Source: Epinephelus fuscoguttatus
Taxonomy: Eukaryota > Chordata > Actinopteri > Perciformes > Serranidae
Length of the DNA stretch: 64,000 nt
Assembly (NCBI RefSeq): GCF_011397635.1
Contig: NC_064753.1
Coordinates: forward strand, 25,878,322 to 25,942,321
Direction of reading: 5' to 3'
Numbering within the stretch: position 1 is the first letter of the stretch; every line of letters begins with the position of its first letter. Of the stretch, positions 31,456 to 64,000 are shown piece by piece. The translations under genes and the position numbers were made by a program. The notes beneath the pieces were generated by a model. It made no database searches, was not told where the DNA came from, and saw nothing but the letters and a program-made list of their open reading frames with translations.

Positions 31456-36337
<4,882 letters not shown>

Positions 36338-36570
36338 CTCTAAGGTGAGCACGACGAGGCTAAACCCTCCTGCAAATGTACCTGGGGTGGTAGTTGGTTT
36401 GTAAGTAGCTGGATTATCTCAATAGCAGAATAAACGCTCAACACTTCTGCAGACAGTCCACAACAATTTCGCTCCCGACGTTTCCCTCGGCCTCCTCTTC
36501 CGGGTGACGTGCGTTTTCCTGGGCGACATCCCCGACAGCGACACCTGCTGGTCTGGATGATGAACATCAG
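36338..36570 (-). promoter_or_regulatory. nudt21: nudt21 promoter region
   Basis: This G+C- and CpG-rich stretch lies directly upstream of the nudt21 start codon. It contains an ETS-type 'cttccgg' at 36498-36504 directly followed by 'tgacgt', a CREB/ATF core (36505-36510). This is typical of housekeeping promoters. The transcription start is not resolved. Confidence 0.5.
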
Positions 36571-38202
36571 CTAGTGCATTTTTATGGTTTCCACTTTTTT
36601 CCTCTGATTAAATTAAATCAAATTCAAGAAACATTTTGTGAATGAAGCCCAGGATACTCTCTTTTACTCCTCCAGCTGTTGTGTGACAGGATGATCCCCT
36701 TCATTACATTCTGTACTACAGCCGTTGTCACAGGAATACACAGTAACTCCTTATTAGTATCTAAGTTGTTGATTTGAACTGCAAATTATAAAGTAAAGAA
36801 CATTTTGGCCTGAATAAAATGCCACTGTACTCAAGTTGTGAAAATGTTAATTGTCTTTAATTACCCCAATTTCAGCATTTGAATTTTATTCTGCTGTGCA
36901 ATCTAACCCTGGGAGGGTGATGGAGCACTAAAGGCTTTCATAACAAGAGGTAATACGGCCTAATATGTAACATCTCTTATGTGTCTTTGATAAAACTGCA
37001 GTGCTGTAATGTAAAACAAAATATGACCTTGTCATATGCACCAATTTGAAAATTACCTTACATTTGTATTACAAGAACAGAAATAAAATGAAGAAATACC
37101 ATTTAGCACCCAGGGTTATACTTTCCCAACTGTATGGCCTGTGATTTTAAATTATTTTATGACAGGTTTGAAATACTTTTAGTCTACCAATATCAAGTTA
37201 TAAATCAGATTTTAATTCCCTAATAGAACATTATTTATATCATTCAACATTGATTTATTACTGTAGTAGTTTGATTAACTGGCCAGATCCAAACAGTTTC
37301 TCTATGACGATCATATTTCTTTTCTCTCAAAAAAGTACTTAAAGGTCTGTTTCCTCTCTGAGCGGGTAACTCTAAACCCAACTTAACCCAGGAATACAGT
37401 AACTTCCTTTCCACTCATGAACCTATGTCAGCTTTTCCATGTGGAGTAATGACATCAGCTATTCTCAGTGCCAGGGTGCAAATGTAGTAGATCTAGGTTA
37501 TTTTAGCTGAGAGGCAAGTTGTGGATTAACATTTTAACCCCAGAAAGCTTCAAACAAACATTAATTTCAGGATAAAACTGAACTATTGACCTTTGAGACA
37601 GTAGTTTGGCTAAAAGCCTTAACTCAATGCTTGCTTACTAGCTTTTTCCAGAGCTTTTAACAACTTTGATCAGGGACAACGATATAACCACCTTTGACAA
37701 CAACTGAACTATCTTCATGGCAACTGAGGAAGACCATGGGCTCCAGAAAAAGCAAGTGCACCTTGACTTAAAGTTTTCTTGTCAGATAACGTGAATTATT
37801 GTTAGAAATAATGTATCACACATTAAAAAAGCAGAGGGAGTGACTCAGTCAATTCAATATTCCATTTAATAGTCATAACTATGTCTCTTATCCATCTATT
37901 GTAAACATGGTGTATTTTACCACAGTAGTTGTCTTATGGTACATAATCATACGTGCAATGCAAAAATTCAAACATAAGTTAAAAAAGGACAAAGACACTG
38001 CTGGATTTGTTGATTACATCACACCAAGGGGATCTCAGTTCTTTGGTCCAGTGGCCCACCCTTTGTGGTGTGCTGCTGTAATGTGGTGGTCCCTGGAGGA
38101 AGTGCCATGGATCGTCTCCCCCCCTTTTACCCTTTACTGTGGTCTCTCCTGCCCCCGTCACAGTAGTTGGTCCCATGTTTTAGACATTTATCTATTTTTG
38201 AA
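36571..38202. other. Spacer between nudt21 and carmil2
   Basis: A/T-rich spacer containing one copy of a duplicated segment (37165-37590; see 45020-45650). carmil2 ends at 38203 on the minus strand, so its 3' UTR extends leftward into this spacer. No gene is supported on either strand. Confidence 0.6.
37165..37590 (+). repeat. Duplicated segment, left copy
   Basis: From 'atatcattcaacattgattt' through 'ccatgtggagtaatgacatc' to 'taatttcaggataaaact', this segment recurs in the same orientation at 45020-45650 with perhaps 80-85% identity. It contains no open frame. The two copies bracket the carmil2 fragment. Confidence 0.8.
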
Positions 38203-41200
38203 TTACTTCTCACCCTTTGACTTTGTTTCTTCTTGTTTTTGACCCTCTGTCGTCTCCTTGTTGCTATGCAGATCACCATCTTTCCCTGATGCAGGTTCAG
38301 GCATTCCCACCTCTGCTTTCACTGTGTCTTCTTCGGGTTTCACTTCTGTCATTATCACTTCACTGTTAGAAGTGAGAGCCGGTTTCTCATTTTCACTCTC
38401 GCTCTCCTTCCCACCGTCGACGACTTTCTTGCTCTCATCCACCTCAATTTGCTTGCTCTTATGAACCATCTCAAGCTTGTCATCTGCTGTTGAGAGGGGA
38501 AATCCACAAAACATGGCATTCAGCATACATCTATGTACATGTTGAAGTAGACAATTACATACAAGCATACATTATATACTCACAGATCTCATGACTTACC
38601 AGTGCCCCTTTCTGTAGGCTCTACACTGGGTCTTTCTTCAGGAGATGCCTGCACATCATTATCTTGGCCTGAACTATCATTAGGGGGGGCTGGACTGGTC
38701 AAATGGTGAGAAGTAGCACTTGAGTTATCAATAGTTGATGTGAGGGTAGTGCTGACGTTGTTAGTGTAAGGTGGGTCTGAGTCAGTCATGAGTGGCGAGC
38801 AAATTGCAGCTGTGGTGGCTGAACTGGCGGTGGACATGGTATCTGCACGGTTTAAACTGGTGGCGGTGGAAGGGGTGTCTGTGTGGTTTGTTTCACTGGA
38901 GGAGGTGGAGGGAACAGATATATCAGCAGGGCCAGGGGTGGCTAGGTGAGTAATGGTGGACGTGGAGATGCAGTCAGTGGATGTTGGGCTTGTAGTGGTG
39001 GTGGGAGAGGTGGAGATGGTGGGAGGGAGGGTAGAAGAGATCAGGGTGGAGGCAGTGGTGATGGAGGCAACAGGTGAAACTGCAGTTGTAACGATATCAC
39101 TTGTGTTAGGAGGTGGAGATGTTGTTTGAGTGACTGATGAAACTACAGTTGCAGAGCTAGTGGAAGTGACTGAAGTGGAATCATCACAAGCTTCGGCAAC
39201 TGAAGTGGTGGCAGCAGACGAGCCTGGCGGCATATCTGATATGCTGGTGGAGGGTGAAGAAGCGGTGGTGATGACAGAAATAGCTGCACCACCACCAGCA
39301 GCAGGAGCAGCATCGACTGAGAGAACACCATTTGGCTCTGAGAGAGTCAATTTAGTTGACAGGTTTGTTGATGTTGTGGAAACAGAGCTTTCATTGCCGG
39401 GAGCAGAAACTGTTTCCGAGGTGGTAATGGAAGGCGTAGTTACTGTTGTTGAGTTTGATGTGACAGAGAGGCTTGGAGTGATGGACTCAGAGGAAGTGGA
39501 AGTAACTAAGACAGAGGTGGGGGGCTCTGTGGGTGTAGTGGTGCTTGATGTTAAGGTTGAGGTGGGTGGTTCAGTGGTAGTAACATTAGCTTCAGCGATA
39601 GAGGGTTTGCTGTCAGGCTCTGTAACATTCGTGGGTGTTGTAGCTGCTGCAGTGGGGTTAACAGAGTCAGTGCATATATCTGTGTCAGAGGGAGGTACAG
39701 TACTTGTAAAATCAGCTGAGTCAGGGACTGAGTTTGAGATTGTCGGTACAGTAGAAGCGGTGGTTGTAGTGAGTGCAGGAGTAGGTGGAGCTGCAGTTGG
39801 ACTCAGTTTAGTGGGCGTGTTTGTCTCCCCTTCTTGTATTTGGGCTAGCTCGTTCTCAGGTGTGTTGCGGCCAGATGTTGTGGGGGGTGGACCTGGCTTG
39901 AGAACGGGCTTTGGAAGCAAAGCAGGTTTCCCAGCTGACTCGTGTGCTGACACACTTGGGCGGATTTGATGCCTTGTGTCTATAGAAAAAAATGAATGTG
40001 CAAATTATTTTACTATCATACACGTACTATATGAGCGATTGAATCAGTGTTTGTGTTTTACCTGATGATGCAGACATCGTTCGAGGTTTTGTGAAAGTAG
40101 GCGGTGGCTCAGGTTTACTGTCAATGATAGTACCTGAGACACAAAGATCATTAACCAGAGGAATTAATTCACTATTATGTCACTATTATGGATGAGAGCA
40201 GCCTTATCAGTCTGAAGAGATATTACATCCTTGTAATGGAGTAGTGATCCATGTTAGAAAGTCTCTCCCTTTGATACAAACCCCTCAACTTCAAAGATTA
40301 ATTCTGCTTCATTAATGCTAAGCTGGAGCAGAGAGGAGTTTAATCATATTACACATCAAATAGATAAAGGAACCTACCTTCAGATTCTGCTTTTTTCATC
40401 TCTCCCTCCGGATTCTACAAGAATGAAAGAGGCAATTAAACACTTCTGAGACTCCTACAGTATACCAGGCTTGGGTGGTATCAAGGTATTAGAGTATACC
40501 CAGGTATGTAGAAATCCCAAAGATATGATTTTCATTGCCATAAAAAATACAGACGCTCCTCTTTCTATTAAACTGATAGGGAGATGCTGTATTGAGTTGA
40601 TGTAATACACAGCACACACCACCAGAGTGTCTCTACGGGTGGAACAGGCAGCTGAGGTGAGAAAGATGCCAACTGCAAGTGGTGGGGATAAGGTAGTACC
40701 ACATAGCCACACCTATCTCCACAGCACTGTGTCAGTGCTAGAGAAAGGTTTTTACTCACAGATTCGTTTTCTGCTATGGGGGAAAAAACACTCTGGCTTG
40801 TTTATGTTTCTTAAAACCAATCAGGATTGTCTTAGGCGACACTTAGCACTGGGTGGATACAGCGACAGTGCTCTTGCAATAAAGGGGCAGGGGTGAACTT
40901 GTTTTGGTGGAACTTTATAGACAAAGATAATTCAATAACCAGTACCCTAGGTGAAGCATGACTATACTTTAGCTCTGGAAGAACTCACTGGATCTGTTAA
41001 AACCCCTGACAATTTGCTGGCTGTATGTGGCTCTAGCAGAACATTATTACGACAATATTACAGAAGCGCATGTGAAGTAGAACGGATCCTTACATTAGTG
41101 AAGTCAACTTGACTCAGTCACTTGTGCCTGTCGCAACCAGAGTTAAAAGATGTGGCTAATCAACTCCGAGTGGTCATGTCAGAAAATGGATCACTAGCAG

Positions 41201-42290
41201 GCAGAGAAGTCCTCCAAGATCAAGTCTGGGCTTTTCTGAGGTGCGTTAATTAGTTGTTAAATTTGTTGTAGATCTTAACAACAATTCACAGGACTGTAAA
41301 AATAATGGATGCAACAGCTGTGACATCACCTATTGGTTTGTGGACTCCCATTTTGAAGCTTTGAGTTTGCCACCTCTGCCGTCACCATCTTGGTTTTTGA
41401 AGCCAGAAGTGACCACATTTGGGTGAGAGGCTGGCGATGTGAAGGAACAAGGGGTGGATCTGACTGAGAAGAAGAGGACACTATCGGCAAACAGCCCTTC
41501 ACTCAAAGTGGCCCGGCCTTAATGATGTGTAACTTTAAGCCTTAATAACATGTTAACAGGTGAGTTTTATAAAAATTTACCAACCGTAAAGTTGTCATGA
41601 ATGCTGAAAATAAGCTAAGCAAGTAAAGATGGGCATTTTAACATTAGTGTCAATAGAGATTGACTCACTTCTGGAGCCAGCCTCCAGTGGCCATTCAAGG
41701 AACTGCAGTTTTTAGCACTTCCATGTTGGCTTTATTTTTCAGCCCCGGAGGTTGCTGCTTGATCAAAACGTGCCATTTCCACTATATATATATTGTTAGC
41801 TTGGAGGTTGTTGTTGCTTACCGTAGTGAAGGGGATTAGGAAACAGTAAGATGCAGATAGCGGCAGGAAGGGAATGGTGGCTGAAATCAGCAGCCCAATA
41901 GCAGGCTTATAGCCACAGTCTACATCTGGTGAGTCAGACTAGGGATAACAATAACAGAATGAGTAAAAAAGAAAAATGTCTCTGCCCCTTTTTGGGAGTA
42001 TTGCCACATATAACTTTATCTTGACATGACTACAAAAGCAGTTTATTAGCCACATGATTTTTTTCAACACATCATCCCTGTTCAGCCCACTGATGTGTCG
42101 AATCCGCTGTGGCAATAGGTGTCATCAGCTCCTCCAGCAAGAAGGGCGCTTATTTCCTATCTTGTGTGGACCATAAGTATTTAAACCCAGCAAGACTTGT
42201 CAAAGTAGGCTGATAGCATATTTGAAACATAGCATTGTGGGCTAGACAATGACATACATGCTACAATGACTTCTATGACCAGTAGCTCAG

Positions 42291-42330
<40 letters not shown>

Positions 42331-44532
42331 CATTACCATATACCCCAATGAAATGTCAGGAAAGTGTGAAGGTAAGAAAAAATAGATAGCACCCAAGCTC
42401 ACGCTATACATATATTAATTCAGACATACACATTCACACACCTGTGTCTCTCCAGGCTGGGCTTTAGAAACTCCAATACGTTGAAGCATGAGATGGAGTT
42501 TCTGTTCAAAGCTATGTTGGCCTTCGAATTGTTTCTGAAATAAGCAACACAAAGTAGTGAGTGCTTTTCAAAACTTATCTGCTGATATAATTGTATATAT
42601 GACTTTATTCTACTAACACTCACCTTTGAAGTGTTTCGGGCATTGGTAGTCCCTGCTGCTGCTGATCCTGACAGCAAAATGAGAGACTGGGACTTCCCCT
42701 CTCTGAGAGCTCGGCGGGGAGGCACTGCTTCACCCCTCAGCGGCGCGCCAGGTGTCTCCTGAACAGCTGACTCTCCAGTAACAGCACCGGGATGTTCTTT
42801 CGCTTTCTCCTTTTCATTTTCCTTGTCGTGCTCCTTGACTCGGTCCTTATCTTTTTCTTTCTCCGCTCTGGCAACCTCCCTGAGCGGACGAATGAGATCA
42901 GCGATAGAGGCCTTTTTGGGTCGCCCCTCGTGGCTTGTTTCTGATTTCAGACCTCGTCTCTTTTTGAGTGTAAAGAAGTCACCAAGCTTCCTCCTGAGTG
43001 TTTTCGTCGGGGGTGGACAAGGGACAGAGCTGGCAGGAGCCACTTCGTGCACTGTGATAGATTCCTCATCTTGCTTTTTCCTACATAAAGGATCATAGTC
43101 TGTATATCAAGCCAATAATGTGTACAACCAGCTTACTTTTATTAAAGTATTATTAGGAACTAAATTAGCTAAGTATCAAGGAACTATAAAGAGGCTAATT
43201 AGGCAGCTGTTGATACTCACAGTGTATCAGTAGGAAGTACTCTCTTAGTAAAGAACTCTTCAACTCCTTCATCCACTCTCCCCATGAGCTCAAGGACTTC
43301 ATTGTCACTCTCAATTATTGTCTCCTGATTTCCACACACATACACAGAAAAACATTTCACACCAAAGATCAAACAAACTGATGCTGAAGAGCAACTTGTA
43401 TCATATGTAACTTTACATTACATAACCCTCACCTCTGAAAAACCCACACACTCTGGCACTAGTGTTTCTCCTGCCTCTATAGGTGTATTTTGGTTTGAAT
43501 CTCTCATCCAGTCATGCTACAAACCAGCCTCCTGGGAGTCAGTTGCTCAGTAACGTACAATGGGGGGGCGTCACTGGTTTTACATGCAGAATGAGAGCAA
43601 CATAACTCATTTTGCCAATGTAGGTAATGTGATATCAAAATTGCAACCATACAGTGTTGCATCATCCTGATCATATTAACATCTGTAGACACAAGTAGCA
43701 ATAAAAACCAGGAGGTTGACTGCAGAACACAAATTTAGCAGAAGTCACCGATACATGATATCCTGTCAGGGGAATTGCTTGAATTTGGTCTCCCTGGCCA
43801 TTGGCTCCAAGGGAGTGACTCTATGTCTACAGCCTAATAGCTCTGTGACAACATGATCAGCTCAGTGGAAAATGGAGATGATCACACACATTTTGATATA
43901 ATTCCCTGAAAAAATACAAACAGCAGGAGATTTTTTCAGTGAGAGAAAGAGAAGACATTCAGACCAAACTACCACTCGCTCTCATACATACTCATCATGC
44001 TCTTACACACAGAAAATACCAAGTGTGGGTTCATCAAACAGCCGGTGACCGGTACAATGGGACTGCCTTATTCAAGCAGGGACCAGGCATCTTTTACAGC
44101 ACTCCCCCTCCATCCTTCCCTTCCCCCTGCCTCTCCCCTCTGTACCCTATTACATCTCTCCTCTCTCCCCCCCTTCCATTTTCTCTCCTCACACACACCA
44201 CCTTTCCCTCACACTCCATTTTTACAAAAACCTCTCTGATCCTCCTTCACAGTACCTGTGGTCTGCTGGGACGATAGTTCAGTTTTTGTCGGTGAGGTCT
44301 CGGTCTGCTCTGGGTGTAGTGCCTGAGCGCTGGTCCGCCCAATGGCAGCTCCATTGGGGAGACACGGCACGCTGTTGCCGTGGAGCTCTGTTGCCGTGGC
44401 TCTGTTGCTGAGGCACCGTTGCTAAGAGCACGAGCAGCAGCAGTATGTAATGCCTCCACTGAGGTGGGAGGGGCCAGGCTGGCTAGACTGACAGATCTGA
44501 CAACAGAACCTTGCCTTTCTCTGCCCCCTCCC
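38203..44532 (-). CDS. carmil2: CARMIL2-like capping protein regulator, C-terminal half (5' partial)
   Basis: CARMIL2 (RLTPR) binds and regulates actin capping protein at membranes and supports CD28 signalling. Nine minus-strand exons (44256-44532, 43433-43516, 43221-43324, 42624-43080, 42442-42534, 40378-40414, 40062-40133, 38600-39979, 38203-38486) join in phase and encode about 929 codons to a stop. Motifs appear in family order: capping-protein site 'ALRHYTQSRPRPHRQ', then 'LMGRVDEGVEEFFTKRV', 'TLRRKLGDFFTLKKRR' with 'KASIADLIRP', 'QSLILLSGS', and 'SFEQKLHLMLQRIGVSKAQ' with 'GEMKKAESEG', matching human CARMIL2 rather than CARMIL1. A 460-codon Ser/Thr-rich exon has no counterpart that I recall. 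The exon at 43433 is the least certain. The first exon starts in phase 2, so coding sequence should precede it, yet no PH or leucine-rich-repeat exons are visible before ctcf. Neighbouring ctcf fits human synteny. Confidence 0.85.
38600..39979 (-). CDS. carmil2: Long Ser/Thr-rich exon of carmil2
   Basis: This single 1380-nt exon encodes about 460 residues, from DTRHQIRPSVSAHESAGK to VEPTERGTG. It is dominated by Thr, Ser, Pro, Ala and Val in irregular low-complexity runs (for example TSTLTSSTTTPTEPP). The start keeps family-like 'KPALLPKPVLKPGPPP'. It has a good acceptor (TTTTTCTATAG) and donor (GTAAGTCA), no stops, and phase 1 at both ends. Codon composition creates a long chance open frame on the opposite strand. 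The segment is probably disordered and may be heavily phosphorylated or glycosylated, which is inference. Confidence 0.85.
41270..41800 (+). repeat. Dispersed fish repeat in a carmil2 intron
   Basis: Contains 'agctgtgacatcacctattg', 'gtttgtggactcccatttt', 'gccgtcaccatcttggtttt' and 'cttccatgttggctttattt'. It is related to the inverted copy at 22300-22805 and to flanks at 27270 and 28445. It lies in the 2-kb intron 40415-42441. It is non-coding. Confidence 0.65.
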
Positions 44533-45019
44533 CTCCAAGAGGAAAACCATGAGAAAAAGATGGTGATAAAATAAGAAGGGGAAGAGAGAGGGAGGAATAA
44601 AGTGACCACACTAACATCTGTTTCATCCCTGCATCCAAGCCTATGACAAGTATATGCATACGAGTTGACTGCAAAGGAAACAGCTGAAATGAACAAAATG
44701 TTCTATTGGTTATGTAACAAATTAATAATTTATTTTATATGCGGAAAAGATGCTCTGAAATTCTGTAATTCAAAATGAGATGTCTCACCAATACTAGAGG
44801 AAACTGTACTAAATAGTCCTGAGAGGATTGTTAGATATCTTGATAATTAGCTGTAAGACTTGCTCAGAAACCATAAAATAAGACACAGGCACACACCCAC
44901 AAGCACCAATCTCTATGTATCTTAATTATACTACTAATACCCCTGAAGGCGCGTGTAGGGAGTTTCATGGGAACTGTTTTTGAATATTTGATATTCAAAT
45001 CCAGCAACTCAATTCCCAG

Positions 45020-45650
45020 TTTGAAACACTTTGATATAAATCTATCATTTACACTGGTTTTAGTGGCAGATAAGGGAATTATTCATATCATTCAATGTTG
45101 ATTTATGACTGTAATTGTTTAATTAACTGGCCTAATCCACACAATTTCTATTTTCTCTCGAAAAGTATTCAAAGAACCATAGGCGTAGATAGCAGGGGGG
45201 ACACAAGGGAAACACCCACCTCAATATTTAGAACCCCCAATAGTTAGAGGACTTCTTTGGATCAAAATTAAAGACATTTACACCATAAATTGACGCAGAG
45301 AAGGCACAAACTGGTGCATACAAAAATCACTAAAATGCAGAAAATTAAGTGTTTGACACCCCCAACACCCTGTTCCAATGATGAAATGAAACCCATGCCC
45401 CTGGAAAGGACTGTTTCCTTTCTCAGCGCTTAACTCTAAACCTAACTCAACAACCTAGAAATACAGTAACTTGTTTTCCACTCATGAACCCATGTCACAT
45501 TTTCCATGTGGAGTAATGACATCAGCTATTTTAATGCCAGGGTGCAGATGTAATACACCAAGGTTATTTTAACTGAGAGGCAAGTTGTGTATTAACATGT
45601 GTATTAATATTTTAAACCACGAAAACTTAAAACATTAATTTCAGGATAAA
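45020..45650 (+). repeat. Duplicated segment, right copy with insertion
   Basis: This matches 37165-37590 from 'atatcattcaatgttgattt' through 'tccatgtggagtaatgacat' to 'taatttcaggataaaact'. An insertion of about 227 bp (45183-45409, starting 'cgtagatagcaggggggac') interrupts it and is absent from the left copy. The insert looks like a short mobile element, but no clean target duplication was identified. Confidence 0.78.
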
Positions 45651-46223
45651 ACTTCACTCTGGTCAGCTAGGTAACTATTACAGTCATAAATCAGTGTCTA
45701 AATTATACTTTTATATCAAAGTGTTACAAATTCTGAATTGAGTTATTTTAACTGCAGAAGCTGGATGTGTCTGTCATGTAAATATGATCATACAGCCATA
45801 TATAAATATATAAAAGAATGTTTATGTAGAACAGTTAGCTGGCAAAAGATTCAGTAAAATGTAAAGTCACTGTCCAGATATCGGCAGGGGAACAGAAGAA
45901 TGATGTGCAGCAAAAGTGCCCAGCCAGACTGAACCAGGGACATTGAAACTGATGGCCAGTATCATTTAACTCCTAAACCACCAGAGACCCCATGGTTTCA
46001 GTTTTGCTCTTAAATATTCCATATCCCTAACTTCCACTGAGGTCAGGATGTACTTAAATAAACTGTAAACAGTGCAGGGAGTGTAATAAACAGTAATAGT
46101 AAAACCCCAGCAGCTCATTTGTCCCTCCCAGACCATGGTATCAGGATTTTAGACCATACCAAATGAAAGGCATAACAGAGACAACACTGTGTGGGGGACA
46201 AGATGTGGAAATTAATGTTTTTG

Positions 46224-46364
46224 TATGTAACTGTGTCACATATTAGATTGAAGGTGACATTTTTACACCCAAATAAAAACCTGCAACCCACTATGACTAA
46301 TACATGTGTTTATTTGGATGTGTAAATGTCACCTTCAATCCATTCTGTGACACAATTACACATA
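46224..46364. repeat. Long near-perfect hairpin
   Basis: The left arm 46224-46277 ('tatgtaactgtgtcaca' through 'gattgaaggtgacattttta' to 'cccaaataaa') is the reverse complement, with a handful of mismatches, of the right arm 46309-46364 ('tttatttggatgtgtaaat', 'gtcaccttcaatccattctg', 'tgacacaattacacata'). The loop is 31 nt. It could be a small palindromic MITE or, less likely, a hairpin RNA gene. Confidence 0.85.
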
Positions 46365-46699
46365 AAGACCTCGAGGATAGTGTATAATCACGACTTTCTG
46401 TGTAGTGGGGCCCGCCCTTCACCTACAATATTCACACTGCCCTCTAGTGACTGTTTTTAAGAATTACTTTTATTCACAAAATCACTTGTAACCTCGATTT
46501 AACATGGGATAAGAGGTGTTGAAGACCTATTAGTCATGCTCTGGTAAAACCGATCTGCATTTCTCGTGAGAAAACTAATCAGTACTCTCTGTTCTCTCGG
46601 TCATTGTTGCTCTTCTTCCCACCACCACGCCCACGCCTGAATTCAAATCTGGCGCCCATCACCTTCAGCTCACAGCTCGACCACTCCCCTTTACGCCCT

Positions 46700-46890
46700 C
46701 GGGTGCTTTGTTTGCGCAGGCGCGGTAGCTCATAAGGGCCGCCATTTTGTGTTAGGCCCACTCTTCCTAAGCGGGAGAAAATTTTTAGTCCGGCGCGCAG
46801 CACGTACGGACGTTCACACCGGAACTTGGAGGAACAACCACATGCACCGAGCATCCAGCTGAATATAACGGGGAACAGAAGCAGTCGGGA
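46700..46890 (+). promoter_or_regulatory. ctcf: ctcf promoter and probable first exon
   Basis: This CpG-rich stretch has an NRF1-like 'tgcgcaggcgcg' (46713-46724) and 'ggccgccattttgtg' (46737-46751), a YY1-type site often found at transcription starts. A non-coding exon probably ends at 46890 ('gcagtcggga' followed by GTAAGTGAAG). The first coding exon follows about 1.5 kb downstream. Confidence 0.6.
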
Positions 46891-48449
46891 GTAAGTGAAG
46901 CCGTTACTTTGCCTCCAAACACGGAAACGTTTTTGTAGGAGCCGTCGCCGGCCTCTAGGTGTCACGGTAGGGCTTACCGACCAGGCGGCTGGCGGGGGGT
47001 GTTTGTCTCCCTCTATCGTTATCCAAAATACACTAAATCTGTCTATAAACTGTAACTCCCAGTCTCGGTTGAGTGTTTTGGTGCTTTCCGGCTGATATTT
47101 TGGGGTAATGGCACAGGGATGGCTGTGTTTATCAATATTTCTGTTTTAAGTTTGTTCAGGCCTGACGTCCATCTTATCGTGCCCTTTGTTTCCTGTTTTC
47201 AGACGTACTCGCGCCTCCCGAGTTAACACGAGTTGATGTCTAAGTAGTTTGTACCGTCTAAACAATATATCGTTTGTTTTGACTAATAAACTGTGACTTG
47301 ATAACAGGATGCCATAAAGTAAGCGTTTTAAAAAACAGGCGAACGAGTGACTCCGAAGTATCGATTGATTGATCGACAGATATCAATGTCTAATCAACAC
47401 AGGAAGACGTAAACGGTCACTTTTCTCAAACTTTAACATTACCTCACTGTCGTACAATGCTATAGTAGGATTGCAGATGATGAATTAACACGGTTTGTTC
47501 ACTTAATTAAACTCTAGGCTCCATGTACTACTTTATCTGACCCATACTCTCCACAGTCGGCCAGATGTGCAGTGGATTATCTTTATATAAAACTCAGTCT
47601 AGAAATCAGAGTATACCAGGGTGTCCTTCATTAACGTTACATATACCTCGGGGTTCTAATGGTGAGATGAATGCTGGATATAGTCGAGGGACTGTCTCTA
47701 TTTGGCACGTTTTTAGTAACCCAGTGCACTACATAACATCTAAATTACACTTAAATTTAATCTATTTCTGGCACTTTAACTAGCAGTCACTTGCTTGGAG
47801 TATAGGATTCCACACTGGGTTGGAAGTTAGCACCAAATGCTAGTAAAATATGCCAAAACCAATGCCAATCTGTTGAGTGGTTGGCAGATTTAGGACTCCA
47901 CCAGCCACAGTGGTAGGTGGTCAAAAAGTATTTCCAACCCTGCTCCCACACGTGGATAGATTGACTAAAACTCGATAATCCATATCACAAAGACTTGTAG
48001 TTTGAGTGTTGACTCTGTATATGTATGAAGTGAAACGCGTCGATTGCTAGCAATGTATAAAGTATTCTCTGATTAGATCATTAAATGCTAGAAAATCAGT
48101 TGCCCCTCTCATCTGTTGAAGGGTCAGGTTATCAAAATAAAACAACACACTGGCTCCCAGTGGAGTTTAAGTATCCACATCTGGTACTACCACTTCCTTT
48201 AGAGGCAAAAGGACATGCAGTCATTTGTTGAGCTCATGGCATTTGTAAAAACCAAACAACAAGAAGTTCCAATTACTGAGGGAAACCCCCTCACAGAGGA
48301 CTGTTGGCAGTGTACTGATGTATAGAAACCGGCTCCACATGTACAAACAACATATTTTCAGCTCCTATTTTTTGTTATCAAAATTATAAGTCATTCTCAC
48401 TTTCTGATAAATTGCTTCTCCTTTTAAGGGTGTTAGTTACCCCCTTGCC

Positions 48450-52741
<4,292 letters not shown>

Positions 52742-60158: not shown

Positions 60159-60323
60159 GTGAGCAGACCTCTTCCTGTCTCCCTCTCTGTCCAGCCGGTT
60201 TTTCCCATTTTAATGTGTTTTAACTGAAATAATCACAAAGGCCTTATCAGAAACGAGCCCATGTTCCTCTCCCTCCCTCAGCACTGTTTGATCCAAGAGA
60301 AACGTGCCTTGTAAGGAAGCAGG

Positions 60324-63300
60324 ATGTTCACAGGCTCCACCAAACTGCCACCTACTAAAACCCCGCAGCCTGAGCGGCTGGATGAAGTGTACGCTGCCTT
60401 ACGCAGAGGCTTACAGTGAGTAAACACATTTCAGGCTCTGTTTGCATTGATTCCAGTGGATGGCTGCCAGGTGGAGGAATCACTGAAAGATACAGCTGCT
60501 TTTGAGTCTGAGAACGAAGACGTAACAGGGATGGGGTTTTTGTTGTCAGGTCGTACCTGCAGGTCCACCAGCTGGAGCTGGACAGTCTGGGTCAGCAGAC
60601 CAGAGAGAACAAGAGGAACGGTCGCCTGGTGAGAGCCCATGTAGTCAAACCGGTCATACCAGTACAGACAATCATTCAGCACCAGGCCGGATGCTGTCGT
60701 CTCCGGTACTCAGTCAGGATGTGAATTTGACATTGTGATGCTAAATGTTTTAATCTTGTTTTCTTTGCAGGGGTCTCTGTATGAGTTAGATAAGGTGAGT
60801 TTCATTCACACCTGTTGTATACAGACATGAGTGCAGCACATTGAAACTGTAGAAGGTGGAAGAGACTTTCTGAATGAGTTTGTCAAGTTTCACTTTTTTT
60901 ATTTTTGCAGCAAGTGAAAGCCATAGAGAGGTTTATGCGTCGTCTGGAATTCCATCTCAGTAAGGTGTGTATTTATGTGAAGACCTGATTTTTTTTTTTA
61001 ATTTAAAGTTGCACTAAGCAAAATTTGAATTAAAACACTAGATCAAAGCACCTTGTGTAATGTGAAAATGTGTTATTCATAGTGAGAAAACCACAGAGAA
61101 TTATCACCTGTCAGATATTTCTCTCAGGAGTTGGTGGAGACCAAATCAAAGCTAATAGGAGGGACAATATTGGACTTAAACATGTTAGATGAGCACAAAC
61201 AGGACTCCAAACGAATGCTAATGTTTCCATATTACTGTTACAAGGTAACATTGTGTCAACATTGTGTTAACAGCTTGTTGCAACGCTCCAGAGTGCTTTA
61301 ATTAGTACATAGAAATTGTAGTTACGAGGGTCGTAACGGTAGAAGATTTTCACAGTAGAATAGCTATCTAAGAAAATATCACAGTGTATTATTATCATTA
61401 TTATCAGTTACAATGACCCTTAAAGAAATGACAACAGAAAGGTTTTTTTGGTTGAACATGTTCTTTATTTTAAGTCAAACTTGAGGCCATTTTCTTAAAT
61501 GGGAGGTAAAATAAAATAAAGGTGAGATTCTCAGCTTGTTTTTTTTTAAGTACTGTAAATAAATATATTTACATGGCATGTTAACCTCCCGTTTTCACAC
61601 CACAGTGTAGAGTGAAACTGATGTACTGCTGCAACCCTGCAAGCCATGAAATAAAAATAACTGTATAATCATTTTCACTTTCATATTCTCCTCAGGTAAG
61701 ACTCTAACATCACATCCATTTGTTGAAACCTGTGTTATATCTGCTCCTCCAGGTTGAGGAGCTGTACGATGCATATTGTATACAGCGGCGACTGCGTGAT
61801 GGAGCAAGTAAGATGGTGGCGGCCTTTAACTCCGCCACTGGCAGCAAGGAGGCCAGAGAGAGCCTGAGTGAAGCCAACAAGGGCTACAAAGAGTGCACAG
61901 AGGTATGTGACCGACCTGAGGTCAGTGTGTTTGAATGTTTCAGCATGTACACCAGGCTCTCTGGGCTGGATTTTACTTCTGTTGAAAATAGATATCAGAC
62001 TGTGTACTGTAAATGTTCTAACAAATCTCTGCTACATTATTCACATCCTTCCCTCCATCTGTCTCTGCAGCACATGTGCTCACTTGAGAGTGAATTAGAA
62101 AGCCAGATGGGAGAATTTCATGTCAAGATGAAGGGTGAGTCATTTTTTTTTTTACCACTTCCTATTTCCTCTGATCTGCATTAGCCCAGTTCTCATTTTT
62201 CTTGTCCATTTTGGATGTTTCAGGCCTCGCTGGCTTTGCACGGCTCTGTGCTGGTGATCAGTACGAGGTAAGAAACACAAACACAAGCACGTAGACACAA
62301 ATTGTGACCGAGTCTGTGCGCCCGATGAACTACATCCGCTGTTTTTGGCCCCATCAGGTCCTAATGCGGTATGGGCGGCAACGCTGGAGGCTGCGAGGCC
62401 GCGTGGAAGTCAGCAACAAGCAGATATGGGACAGTGAAGAGTACATCTTTCTGCCACTTGTCACAGAGCTGCTGTCAATCAAGGTAATGAAATCAGCTTT
62501 TAAAGGCCAAAGCCAGTGATACTTATGATAAACAAATCCCATGAAAAGATCAAAAGCCAAGTATGTGTTACTTTCCTAACCTGTCTGTGCCCACTGGTTC
62601 CTACTCAAGACGTCAAGCTTTAAACAGGTCACACATCATTATTAAAAAGGCTAAACATTTACCTAAAACAGTTGGGATGTTTTCAGCAATCATAATTTAA
62701 ATGGCAGTAAACAGTCCACATGATTTCAGCTGTACATTAATATTTAGTTGTTTGTTTATTGAGCCGCAGTGATGTTGTGTGTGGGACTGAGTCAATATAA
62801 GCTACAGCACAATATATTTTATCAGCAGCCTGATCCTTTAACTCAGTGGTCCCCAACTGGTGGGTCGTGGTCCAAAAGTGGGTCTCGGGTCCATTCTGTA
62901 TGGACCGCAAGTGACTTGCAAATGTGTCAGATTTGCAAAAAAACACAGTTTATATTTAAGTATGGTGAATTCCAGCTACTTCACAGAGACAGCAAAGTAG
63001 TTTGATGACATGACCAAATGCAAGTATGATGCTGACTGTATTAAATTGTCTAGACCTTGAACTAATGACTAAGGAGAAATCTGGGCCCCGAGGCTGGACC
63101 AGATGGGAACCACTGCTTAAACTTATTACATGCATTCTCACAAGCTTCAGCTAATTGTCAACTGTGTTAAAGGAACAATGTGTAAGATTTAGGGAGATAT
63201 AAGGGGATTTAGTGGCATCTAGTGGTGAGGATTGCAGATTGCAACCAGCTAAAACTTCTCCAGCTTAGATTTCCTTCAGTAGTCTTCGTTTAGGAGGTTT

Positions 63301-63950
63301 TTACTGGGAATCGAATTATCCATGGAGGTCTCTTCCTCTCCAAAAATTAAAAACTAACCATGGTGATCCCCGTAGACAAGGACCTGCTCCCTCTGTAGAT
63401 ATAAGTGGCTCGTTCTAAGGTAACGAATGATTATTTTCAGATGATTATACACTGAAGAAAACATACTAATTATATTATATTCCATTTCTGCCAGTATATC
63501 CCTCTAAAGCCTACACACTGGACCTTTAAGTTCCCATGGTCTCTGCCTGTCCTCACCTCTCTCTGCTTGCTTTGGTTGTCAAGGTGACGGAGCTGAAAAG
63601 CCTGGCTAATCATGTAGTGGTGGGCAGCGTGTCCTGTGAAATGCTCGACCTGTTCTGCCCGCTTCCCCAGACGCTTGCTGTGGATATCAACGACCTCGGG
63701 ACAGTGAAGCTGAACTTGGAGGTCACGTGGAGGTACTTTAACCTCTCATGGCCTCTTTTGTTTTTGTTATTTTACACTTTTCACATGTTTATTTAAGAGT
63801 GTTTGGCTCTGTTTCTCACTCTTTGTCCTGCTGTTTTTCAGTCCATTTGATAAGGATGACCAGACATCGTCCACCAGTACAGTTTCCAAACGGCTGCTGT
63901 CTAATCAGAGCCCTCCTGACACGCCCTCTATGCGGGAGCAGGTGTTTTAT
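60324..63950 (+). CDS. ripor1: Rho family-interacting cell polarization regulator 1 (RIPOR1/FAM65A), 5' part
   Basis: RIPOR1 binds active Rho GTPases and links Golgi positioning and cell polarity. Ten coding exons are visible (60324-60415, 60550-60628, 60771-60794, 60911-60964, 61753-61902, 62071-62134, 62224-62267, 62358-62483, 63584-63732, 63842-63950). They join in phase to 297 codons and end at a good donor, so the gene continues past the window; the family is about 1200 residues. The start [14 protein letters not shown] precedes '[16 protein letters not shown]'. The N-terminal Rho-binding coiled-coil region shows '[18 protein letters not shown]', '[19 protein letters not shown]' and '[19 protein letters not shown]'. 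It is followed by '[15 protein letters not shown]', '[19 protein letters not shown]' and '[20 protein letters not shown]', a C2-like region typical of RIPOR proteins. One exon has only eight codons. Synteny with ctcf supports RIPOR1 over RIPOR2 and 3. Confidence 0.95.
60965..61752. other. ripor1 intron with MITE-like sequence
   Basis: At about 60998-61260 the sequence 'gttgcactaagcaaaatttg', 'ggagttggtggagaccaaat' and 'acaggactccaaacg' matches a dispersed fish element. No exon is seen in the remainder. Confidence 0.55.
62844..63115. mobile_element. hAT-like MITE in a ripor1 intron
   Basis: This is the uninterrupted relative of the element at 1472-2179. It starts 'cagtggtccccaactggtg' and ends 'ccagatgggaaccactg'. 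The flanks are 'ctttaact' (62836-62843) and 'cttaaact' (63116-63123), an 8-bp duplication with one mismatch. It is non-coding. Confidence 0.82.
63167..63529. mobile_element. piggyBac-like MITE with TTAA ends
   Basis: The left end is 'ttaaaggaacaatgtgtaag' and the right end is the complement of 'ttaaaggtccagtgtgtagg', so the element lies between TTAA sequences with inverted ends of about 20 bp. TTAA targets are characteristic of piggyBac-type transposition. The 363-bp element is non-coding and sits in the ripor1 intron 62484-63583. Confidence 0.75.
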
Positions 63951-64000
63951 GTGAGTCACTTAACAACAATCCATCACACCTGCTCTGTTACACCACTAGT

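What the first reader, a model, noticed from the sequence alone, without database searches (positions are those of the whole stretch)
38203..46890. carmil2 appears to lack its 5' half at this locus
Nine in-phase exons encode the C-terminal regulatory half of CARMIL2, beginning in phase 2 just before the capping-protein motif. Only about 2.2 kb separate the first of these from the ctcf promoter, and this space shows no exons for the PH domain, leucine-rich repeats or helical region, some 950 residues in human. The C-terminal frame is intact, so it does not look like an old pseudogene. Possibilities are an inversion or translocation break through the gene, an alternative short gene with an unseen first exon, or an assembly error.
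Basis: partly seen in the sequence, partly recalled or inferred. Interest (0 to 1): 0.72.

Follow-up and report, generated by a model that had tools for sequence, protein, structure and literature searches.

The report
Half-length duplicate of fish carmil2 gene
A fish chromosome carries a second copy of carmil2, an actin and immune-cell regulator gene, that has lost its front half but kept an intact back half, while a far more complete copy lies on another chromosome; it is probably an old duplicate cut down to its actin-regulating end, and whether it is still used is unknown.

Summary
On the minus strand at 44.5-38.2 kb, eight exons with AG/GT borders join in one frame of 896 codons that encodes the C-terminal half of CARMIL2 (CPI, CSI, membrane-binding and Thr/Ser/Pro-rich parts). 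No PH, LRR or helical-domain exon was found in the window or the next 40 kb; a planted control shows such exons would mostly be seen. The window has no N.

The genome search changes the interpretation. The CARMIL LRR exon occurs at five places in the held 26-contig assembly, CARMIL C-termini at six. The five N-terminal loci (a carmil1 pair, a carmil3 pair, one carmil2 on C4) each have their own C-terminus. The C4 carmil2 runs from about human residue 139 to the C-terminus and lies near a ripor copy. So the window holds a second, diverged carmil2, probably the teleost genome-duplication partner, that lacks its 5' half. No orphan 5' half was found, so this is not one gene split in two.

Expression cannot be decided here. 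The open frame, and conserved motifs despite scrambled synonymous sites, indicate long purifying selection; the age of the truncation is unknown.

The parts
44256..44458 (-). Exon 1 of the retained half (could start at 44520 or 44532 instead): CPI motif LRHYTQSRPRP at about 44327-44295, preceded by a Met codon at 44354
   Evidence: Pfam CARMIL_C; tblastn to CARMIL2 971-1005; acceptor choice
43221..43324 (-). Exon 2: CSI motif GRVDEGVEEFFTKRV
42624..43080 (-). Exon 3: membrane-binding region KTLRRKLGDFFTLKKRRGLK (about 43004-42945), then SIADLIRPLRE and LREGKSQSLILLSG
   Evidence: same peptides in the C4 copy
42442..42534 (-). Exon 4: SFEQKLHLMLQRIGVSK
40378..40414 (-). Exon 5, 37 nt: EGEMKKAESE
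   Evidence: resembles human DGEIKKAGSDG (alignment)
40062..40133 (-). Exon 6: GTIIDSKPEPPPTFTKPRTMSASS
   Evidence: same borders in C4
38600..39979 (-). Exon 7, 1380 nt, Thr/Ser/Pro-rich (T 102, S 87, P 56 of 460 aa)
38203..38486 (-). Exon 8, to the stop codon
46601..47400 (.). CpG-rich promoter region upstream of ctcf; could also drive minus-strand transcription (one YY1-like match on the minus strand at 46748)
   Evidence: CpG o/e 0.92 and 1.04 at 46601-47000 against 0.39 for the window; use in either direction not tested
45006..45744 (.). 739-bp element with about 57-bp inverted ends in the gap; a partial copy lies at 37230-37579
   Evidence: a genome search for more copies did not complete
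46217..46369 (.). hairpin-forming repeat in the gap
48411..52741 (+). ctcf coding exons, head to head with the carmil2 half
60318..64000 (+). ripor1, 5' part; continues to about C2:25,945,859

Best explanation
The window (C2:25,878,322-25,942,321 of a 1.05-Gb fish genome) holds a second copy of carmil2, most likely the partner left by the teleost-specific genome duplication, that has lost all exons upstream of the CPI exon (some 950 residues in human). Another copy with both halves survives on C4 next to ripor. What remains here is a complete CP-regulating module (CPI + CSI + membrane-binding) with a long disordered tail, in an open frame. I think it more likely than not (about 0.55, inference) that it is or was until recently expressed as a short protein, started from the Met at 44354 just before the CPI motif or from a new first exon near the ctcf CpG island, acting as a capping-protein regulator without the PH-LRR-dimerisation part. 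Shown: anatomy, open frame, absence of the 5' half here and of an orphan 5' half in the held assembly, the C4 copy, the ripor neighbour on both contigs. Inferred: genome duplication as the origin, expression, start site, function.
For: No N-terminal CARMIL exon in the window (control) or in the 39,979 bases to its right. The C4 LRR exon searched genome-wide gives five loci at E 4e-11 or better (C4, C17, C8, C10, C15) and then E 0.156; 23 of 23 candidates scored. Human CARMIL2 1-864 gives the same five loci, the remaining rows being weak LRR-like hits on C6, C11 and C21. CARMIL_C rings at six loci, those five plus C2; only C2 lacks profile positions 1-148. C8 and C17 are closest to CARMIL1, C10 and C15 to CARMIL3. 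C4 shows human residues 139-291 and 444-663, then CPI, CSI, membrane-binding, FEQ and PPPT-KPRTMS segments in order with the same borders where I compared them. A ripor gene lies on C4 at 3.845-3.883 Mb, about 85 kb before carmil2 and on the same strand. In 123 codons of shared motifs C2 and C4 keep 72% of residues, 75/83/46% of codon positions 1/2/3, and 13 of 41 fourfold sites: old divergence with the protein kept.
Against: The 123 codons were chosen because they are conserved. In some N-terminal exons C4 is closer to CARMIL1 or CARMIL3 than to CARMIL2 (LRR exon: 59% to CARMIL2, 64% to CARMIL1); its naming rests on the C-terminal segments, other exons and the ripor neighbour. The first 138 residues of the C4 gene were not seen: Carm_PH found only C10 and C15 and C4:3,972,001-3,992,000 and the stretch before 3,962,001 were not fetched. 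No RNA, reads or other fish were available. Candidate first exons were listed without a chance control.
Confidence: 0.8

Rival explanations
1. A dying duplicate: the 5' half was deleted recently and the rest, no longer transcribed into anything useful, has not had time to pick up a stop or frameshift.
For: Promoter and N-terminal domains are gone; another copy exists on C4; the neighbouring ripor1 may also be incomplete.
Against: No stop or frameshift in 896 codons and AG/GT at every junction. No relic of any upstream exon in the 2.2-kb gap, which a very recent small event would not clear unless it was one clean deletion.
Confidence: 0.3
2. Assembly error: the 5' exons exist in the animal but were dropped or placed on a scaffold that is not held.
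For: Only 26 contigs are held, so unplaced scaffolds may be missing. No reads could be checked.
Against: No N in the window and an uninterrupted ctcf-carmil2 interval with ordinary repeats; the missing exons would have to be lost without trace, although the five other CARMIL loci are recovered.
Confidence: 0.08
3. Nested or split gene: the 5' half lies further along C2 beyond ripor1 on the same strand, or on another chromosome, and is spliced to this half.
For: The orientation relative to ctcf differs from human (recalled), so rearrangement occurred; two inversions with one break inside carmil2 would place the 5' half beyond ripor1.
Against: No N-terminal CARMIL in the 39,979 bases right of the window, which instead hold vrk3-, rab27- and pigb-like genes, and no sixth N-terminus in the held assembly.
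Confidence: 0.03
4. A new functional gene: the half has been kept for a long time as a CPI-CSI-membrane regulator with its own promoter, a subfunctionalised short CARMIL2.
For: Open frame and conserved motifs with scrambled synonymous sites; a Met directly before the CPI motif in C2, in C4 and in human CARMIL2 (alignment); a CpG-rich promoter 2.3 kb upstream.
Against: No expression data; the conservation may date from when the copy was still complete; the shared Met may simply be an internal residue.
Confidence: 0.45

Closest known systems
Human CARMIL2 (RLTPR)
   Same: Order and sequence of CPI, CSI, membrane-binding, FEQ, DGEIKKA and PPP-KPRTMS segments; ctcf and ripor1 as neighbours (human order recalled)
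   Different: Human has some 950 more N-terminal residues (PH, LRR, dimerisation domain); here ctcf is head to head with the gene instead of in tandem (human arrangement recalled)
carmil2 on contig C4 of the same genome
   Same: Same C-terminal segments and, where compared, exon borders; a ripor gene near by
   Different: Keeps the LRR and helical part; spans about 80 kb instead of 6.3 kb
Proteins with a CPI motif but no CARMIL N-terminus, such as twinfilin (title and abstract start seen)
   Same: A capping-protein-binding motif outside a PH-LRR protein
   Different: This one has the CARMIL-specific CSI motif and membrane-binding domain directly behind the CPI motif

Membership tests
CARMIL family (vertebrate CARMIL2) | CPI motif | tested here: met
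   LRHYTQSRPRP in exon 1
CARMIL family (vertebrate CARMIL2) | CSI motif (vertebrate CARMILs only, PMC13208823, passages) | tested here: met
   GRVDEGVEEFFTKRV in exon 2
CARMIL family (vertebrate CARMIL2) | membrane-binding domain with basic-hydrophobic motif | tested here: met
   KTLRRKLGDFFTLKKRR aligned with human RTLRKKLGTLFAFKKPR; by sequence only
CARMIL family (vertebrate CARMIL2) | PH domain, leucine-rich repeats, helical dimerisation domain | tested here: not met
   absent from the window and the 39,979 bases to its right
CARMIL family (vertebrate CARMIL2) | CARMIL2 rather than CARMIL1 or 3 | tested here: met
   FEQ and KPRTMS segments match only CARMIL2 in the alignment; CPI exon found with CARMIL2 but not with CARMIL1
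Partner from the teleost genome duplication | paralogous block with shared neighbours | tested here: met
   ripor and carmil2 on both C2 and C4; two genes only
Partner from the teleost genome duplication | age of the split and copies in other teleosts | not testable with these tools
   no other fish genomes held
Pseudogene | stops, frameshifts or broken splice sites | tested here: not met
Expressed short gene | transcript with its own first exon | not testable with these tools
   no RNA data; candidate first exons only, without a control

The most novel reading that the evidence does not exclude
In this fish a carmil2 duplicate has been pared down to a stand-alone capping-protein regulator (CPI + CSI + membrane-binding + Thr/Ser/Pro-rich tail) freed from the PH-LRR-dimerisation half, expressed from the ctcf-facing promoter and kept by selection: a natural separation of the two halves of CARMIL2.
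Probability: 0.4. Interest if true: 0.6.

Novelty: new variant of a known kind. Interest (0 to 1): 0.38.

Why it matters
CARMIL2 uncaps actin and, separately, links CD28 to CARD11 in T cells (PMC7960730 and PMC12097149, passages). A natural copy reduced to the half that carries the capping-protein and membrane-binding motifs would let these roles be studied apart in an animal that also has a copy with the LRR half. If it is only a dying duplicate, it is an ordinary consequence of genome duplication.

Tried and rejected
Inversion with the 5' half downstream of ctcf on the plus strand: no N-terminal match there. ctcf and ripor1 nested in a giant carmil2 intron: no N-terminal match in the next 39,979 bases, which hold other genes, nor a sixth locus in the assembly. 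Composite transposition between the two direct repeats that flank the fragment: the 45.0-45.7 kb copy has its own inverted ends and looks like an ordinary element; the gene being beside ctcf as in human (recalled) makes transposition unnecessary; copy number in the genome could not be obtained. Complementary split (N half only on C4, C half only on C2): rejected, C4 also keeps its C-terminal segments. acd as a landmark: recalled human ACD gave no clear match in the window and only two weak ones in the genome. Rfam: nothing at gathering threshold in the window. A second ctcf: the search listed high identity (84-91%) at C2 only, but it was swamped by zinc-finger genes (126 of 1479 candidates scored, list cut), so a second copy is not excluded. 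Seven paper searches listed no account of a truncated fish carmil2; they cover only the held open-licence papers.

Full report
Setting. The window is C2:25,878,322-25,942,321 of a genome of 1,046,998,120 bases in 26 contigs. Gene content by Pfam, ORFs and recalled proteins: tradd (-), ogfod1 (-), the carmil2 half (-), ctcf (+), ripor1 (+) (ogfod1 rests on Ofd1_CTDD in one ORF, and on my reading of others). It is a fish by gene content and arrangement (my judgement); the species is not known.

The retained half. Eight minus-strand exons from 44520 (or 44458) to 38203 join in one frame of 896 codons with AG/GT borders and a terminal stop. CARMIL_C covers only its profile positions from 148 on. 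The order of motifs is that of human CARMIL2: MELPLGGPALRHYTQSRPRP (CPI), GRVDEGVEEFFTKRV (CSI), KTLRRKLGDFFTLKKRR (membrane-binding), SFEQKLHLMLQRIGVSK, EGEMKKAESE, PPPTFTKPRTMSASS. PMC13208823 (passages) states that CPI, CSI and membrane-binding motifs stand in tandem in all vertebrate CARMILs and that PH, LRR and dimerisation domains precede them. Exon 7 is 1380 nt of Thr/Ser/Pro-rich coding sequence without a stop; none of 500 shuffles was stop-free.

The missing half. tblastn with recalled CARMIL1 (itself checked against PDB) and CARMIL2, and an HMM of both with filters off, find nothing above noise upstream of the CPI exon anywhere in the 64 kb. Planted controls were mostly recovered: for 35-aa pieces at 45% identity 24-27 of 28 at E<10 and 15-19 of 28 at E<0.01; at 40% identity 22-25 and 8-12 of 28. 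The gap to ctcf contains a 739-bp element with inverted ends and a hairpin repeat, and no N.

Where is the 5' half? Human CARMIL2 1-864 hits five CARMIL loci: C8, C17, C4, C15, C10; the other rows (C6, C11, C21) are weak LRR-like hits. The best-conserved LRR exon of the C4 gene gives the same five at E 4e-11 or better and nothing else below 0.15 (23 of 23 candidates scored). CARMIL_C gives six loci: these five and C2 (25 of 25 scored; one further weak row on C6, E 0.56). By exon identities C8 and C17 are a carmil1 pair and C10 and C15 a carmil3 pair, and C4 is carmil2: human residues 139-291 and 444-663 in the fetched stretches, CPI exon at 4,014,507, CSI exon at 4,028,401, membrane-binding at about 4,033,317, FEQ at 4,039,713, KPRTMS at 4,043,249. 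Its first 138 residues were not seen (Carm_PH rings only on C10 and C15; part of the C4 locus was not fetched). So each CARMIL gene has two loci, and only the C2 copy lacks its N-terminus. No orphan N-terminus is left over.

Why a genome-duplication partner. A ripor gene lies on C4 at 3.845-3.883 Mb, same strand as carmil2 and about 85 kb before it, as ripor1 and carmil2 lie near each other on C2. carmil1 and carmil3 also come in pairs. C2 and C4 carmil2 keep 72% of residues in 123 codons of shared motifs, while only 13 of 41 fourfold sites agree. This fits the teleost duplication (recalled) but does not date it.

Rearrangement. In human RIPOR1, CTCF and CARMIL2 lie in tandem (recalled; PMC12097149, passages, confirms only that mouse Carmil2 ends on Acd). 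On C2 the carmil2 half and ctcf are head to head. ripor1 on C2 can be followed to about 25,945,859, then come vrk3-, rab27- and pigb-like genes (names from my reading plus Pfam zinc ribbon, Ras and Glyco_transf_22). The RIPOR1 C-terminal region was found on C4 only, so ripor1 on C2 may be cut as well; but that search also missed the ripor loci on C1 and C17, so its sensitivity is limited.

How it would work. If expressed, the short protein would carry both capping-protein motifs and the membrane-binding motif. In vitro a CARMIL1 fragment of just these three inhibits capping, binds liposomes and promotes Arp2/3-based assembly on beads (PMC13208823, passages), so this half could act alone. It would lack the PH and dimerisation parts, which the same paper mentions as having potential roles in membrane localisation of CARMIL1. 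A start at Met 44354, which aligns with a Met directly before the CPI motif in C4 and in human CARMIL2, or a new first exon near the CpG-rich ctcf promoter are the options; several ATG-open first exons with a donor-like site exist (seven for phase 2, four for phase 1), with no control for chance, so none is claimed.

Verdict. Observation confirmed with small corrections. The most likely reading is a 5'-truncated second carmil2, not a translocation break through the only copy. Expression and age are open.

Noticed in passing
window 60318-64000 and C2:25,942,322-25,945,859 (L025): ripor1 on C2 may lack its C-terminal region: recalled human RIPOR1 C-terminus matches only C4:3,878,348-3,882,971 and gives nothing convincing past 25,945,859 within the fetched 40 kb. 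The same search also missed the ripor loci on C1 and C17.
   Followed up: partly
window 37230-37579 and 45006-45744: Two copies of a repeat in the same orientation flank the carmil2 half, about 8.07 kb apart, 81-85% identical; the right one has 57-bp inverted ends.
   Followed up: partly
window 36001-36500: CpG-rich stretch (26 CpG in 400 bases, o/e 0.89) between ogfod1 and the 3' end of the carmil2 half, with no gene that I recognise.
   Followed up: no
window 38600-39979: Very long Thr/Ser/Pro-rich exon (460 aa); the C4 copy has a shorter Thr/Ser-rich stretch before its membrane-binding region instead.
   Followed up: no
C2:25,952,500-25,982,300 (L026-L028): vrk3-like (-), rab27-like (-) and pigb-like (+) genes follow ripor1; in human these are not neighbours of CTCF (recalled), so this side of the block was rearranged.
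   Followed up: partly
C23 and C17 of G000: Many zinc-finger loci with 300-900-aa open frames turned up in the ctcf search, most of those listed on C23 and C17.
   Followed up: no
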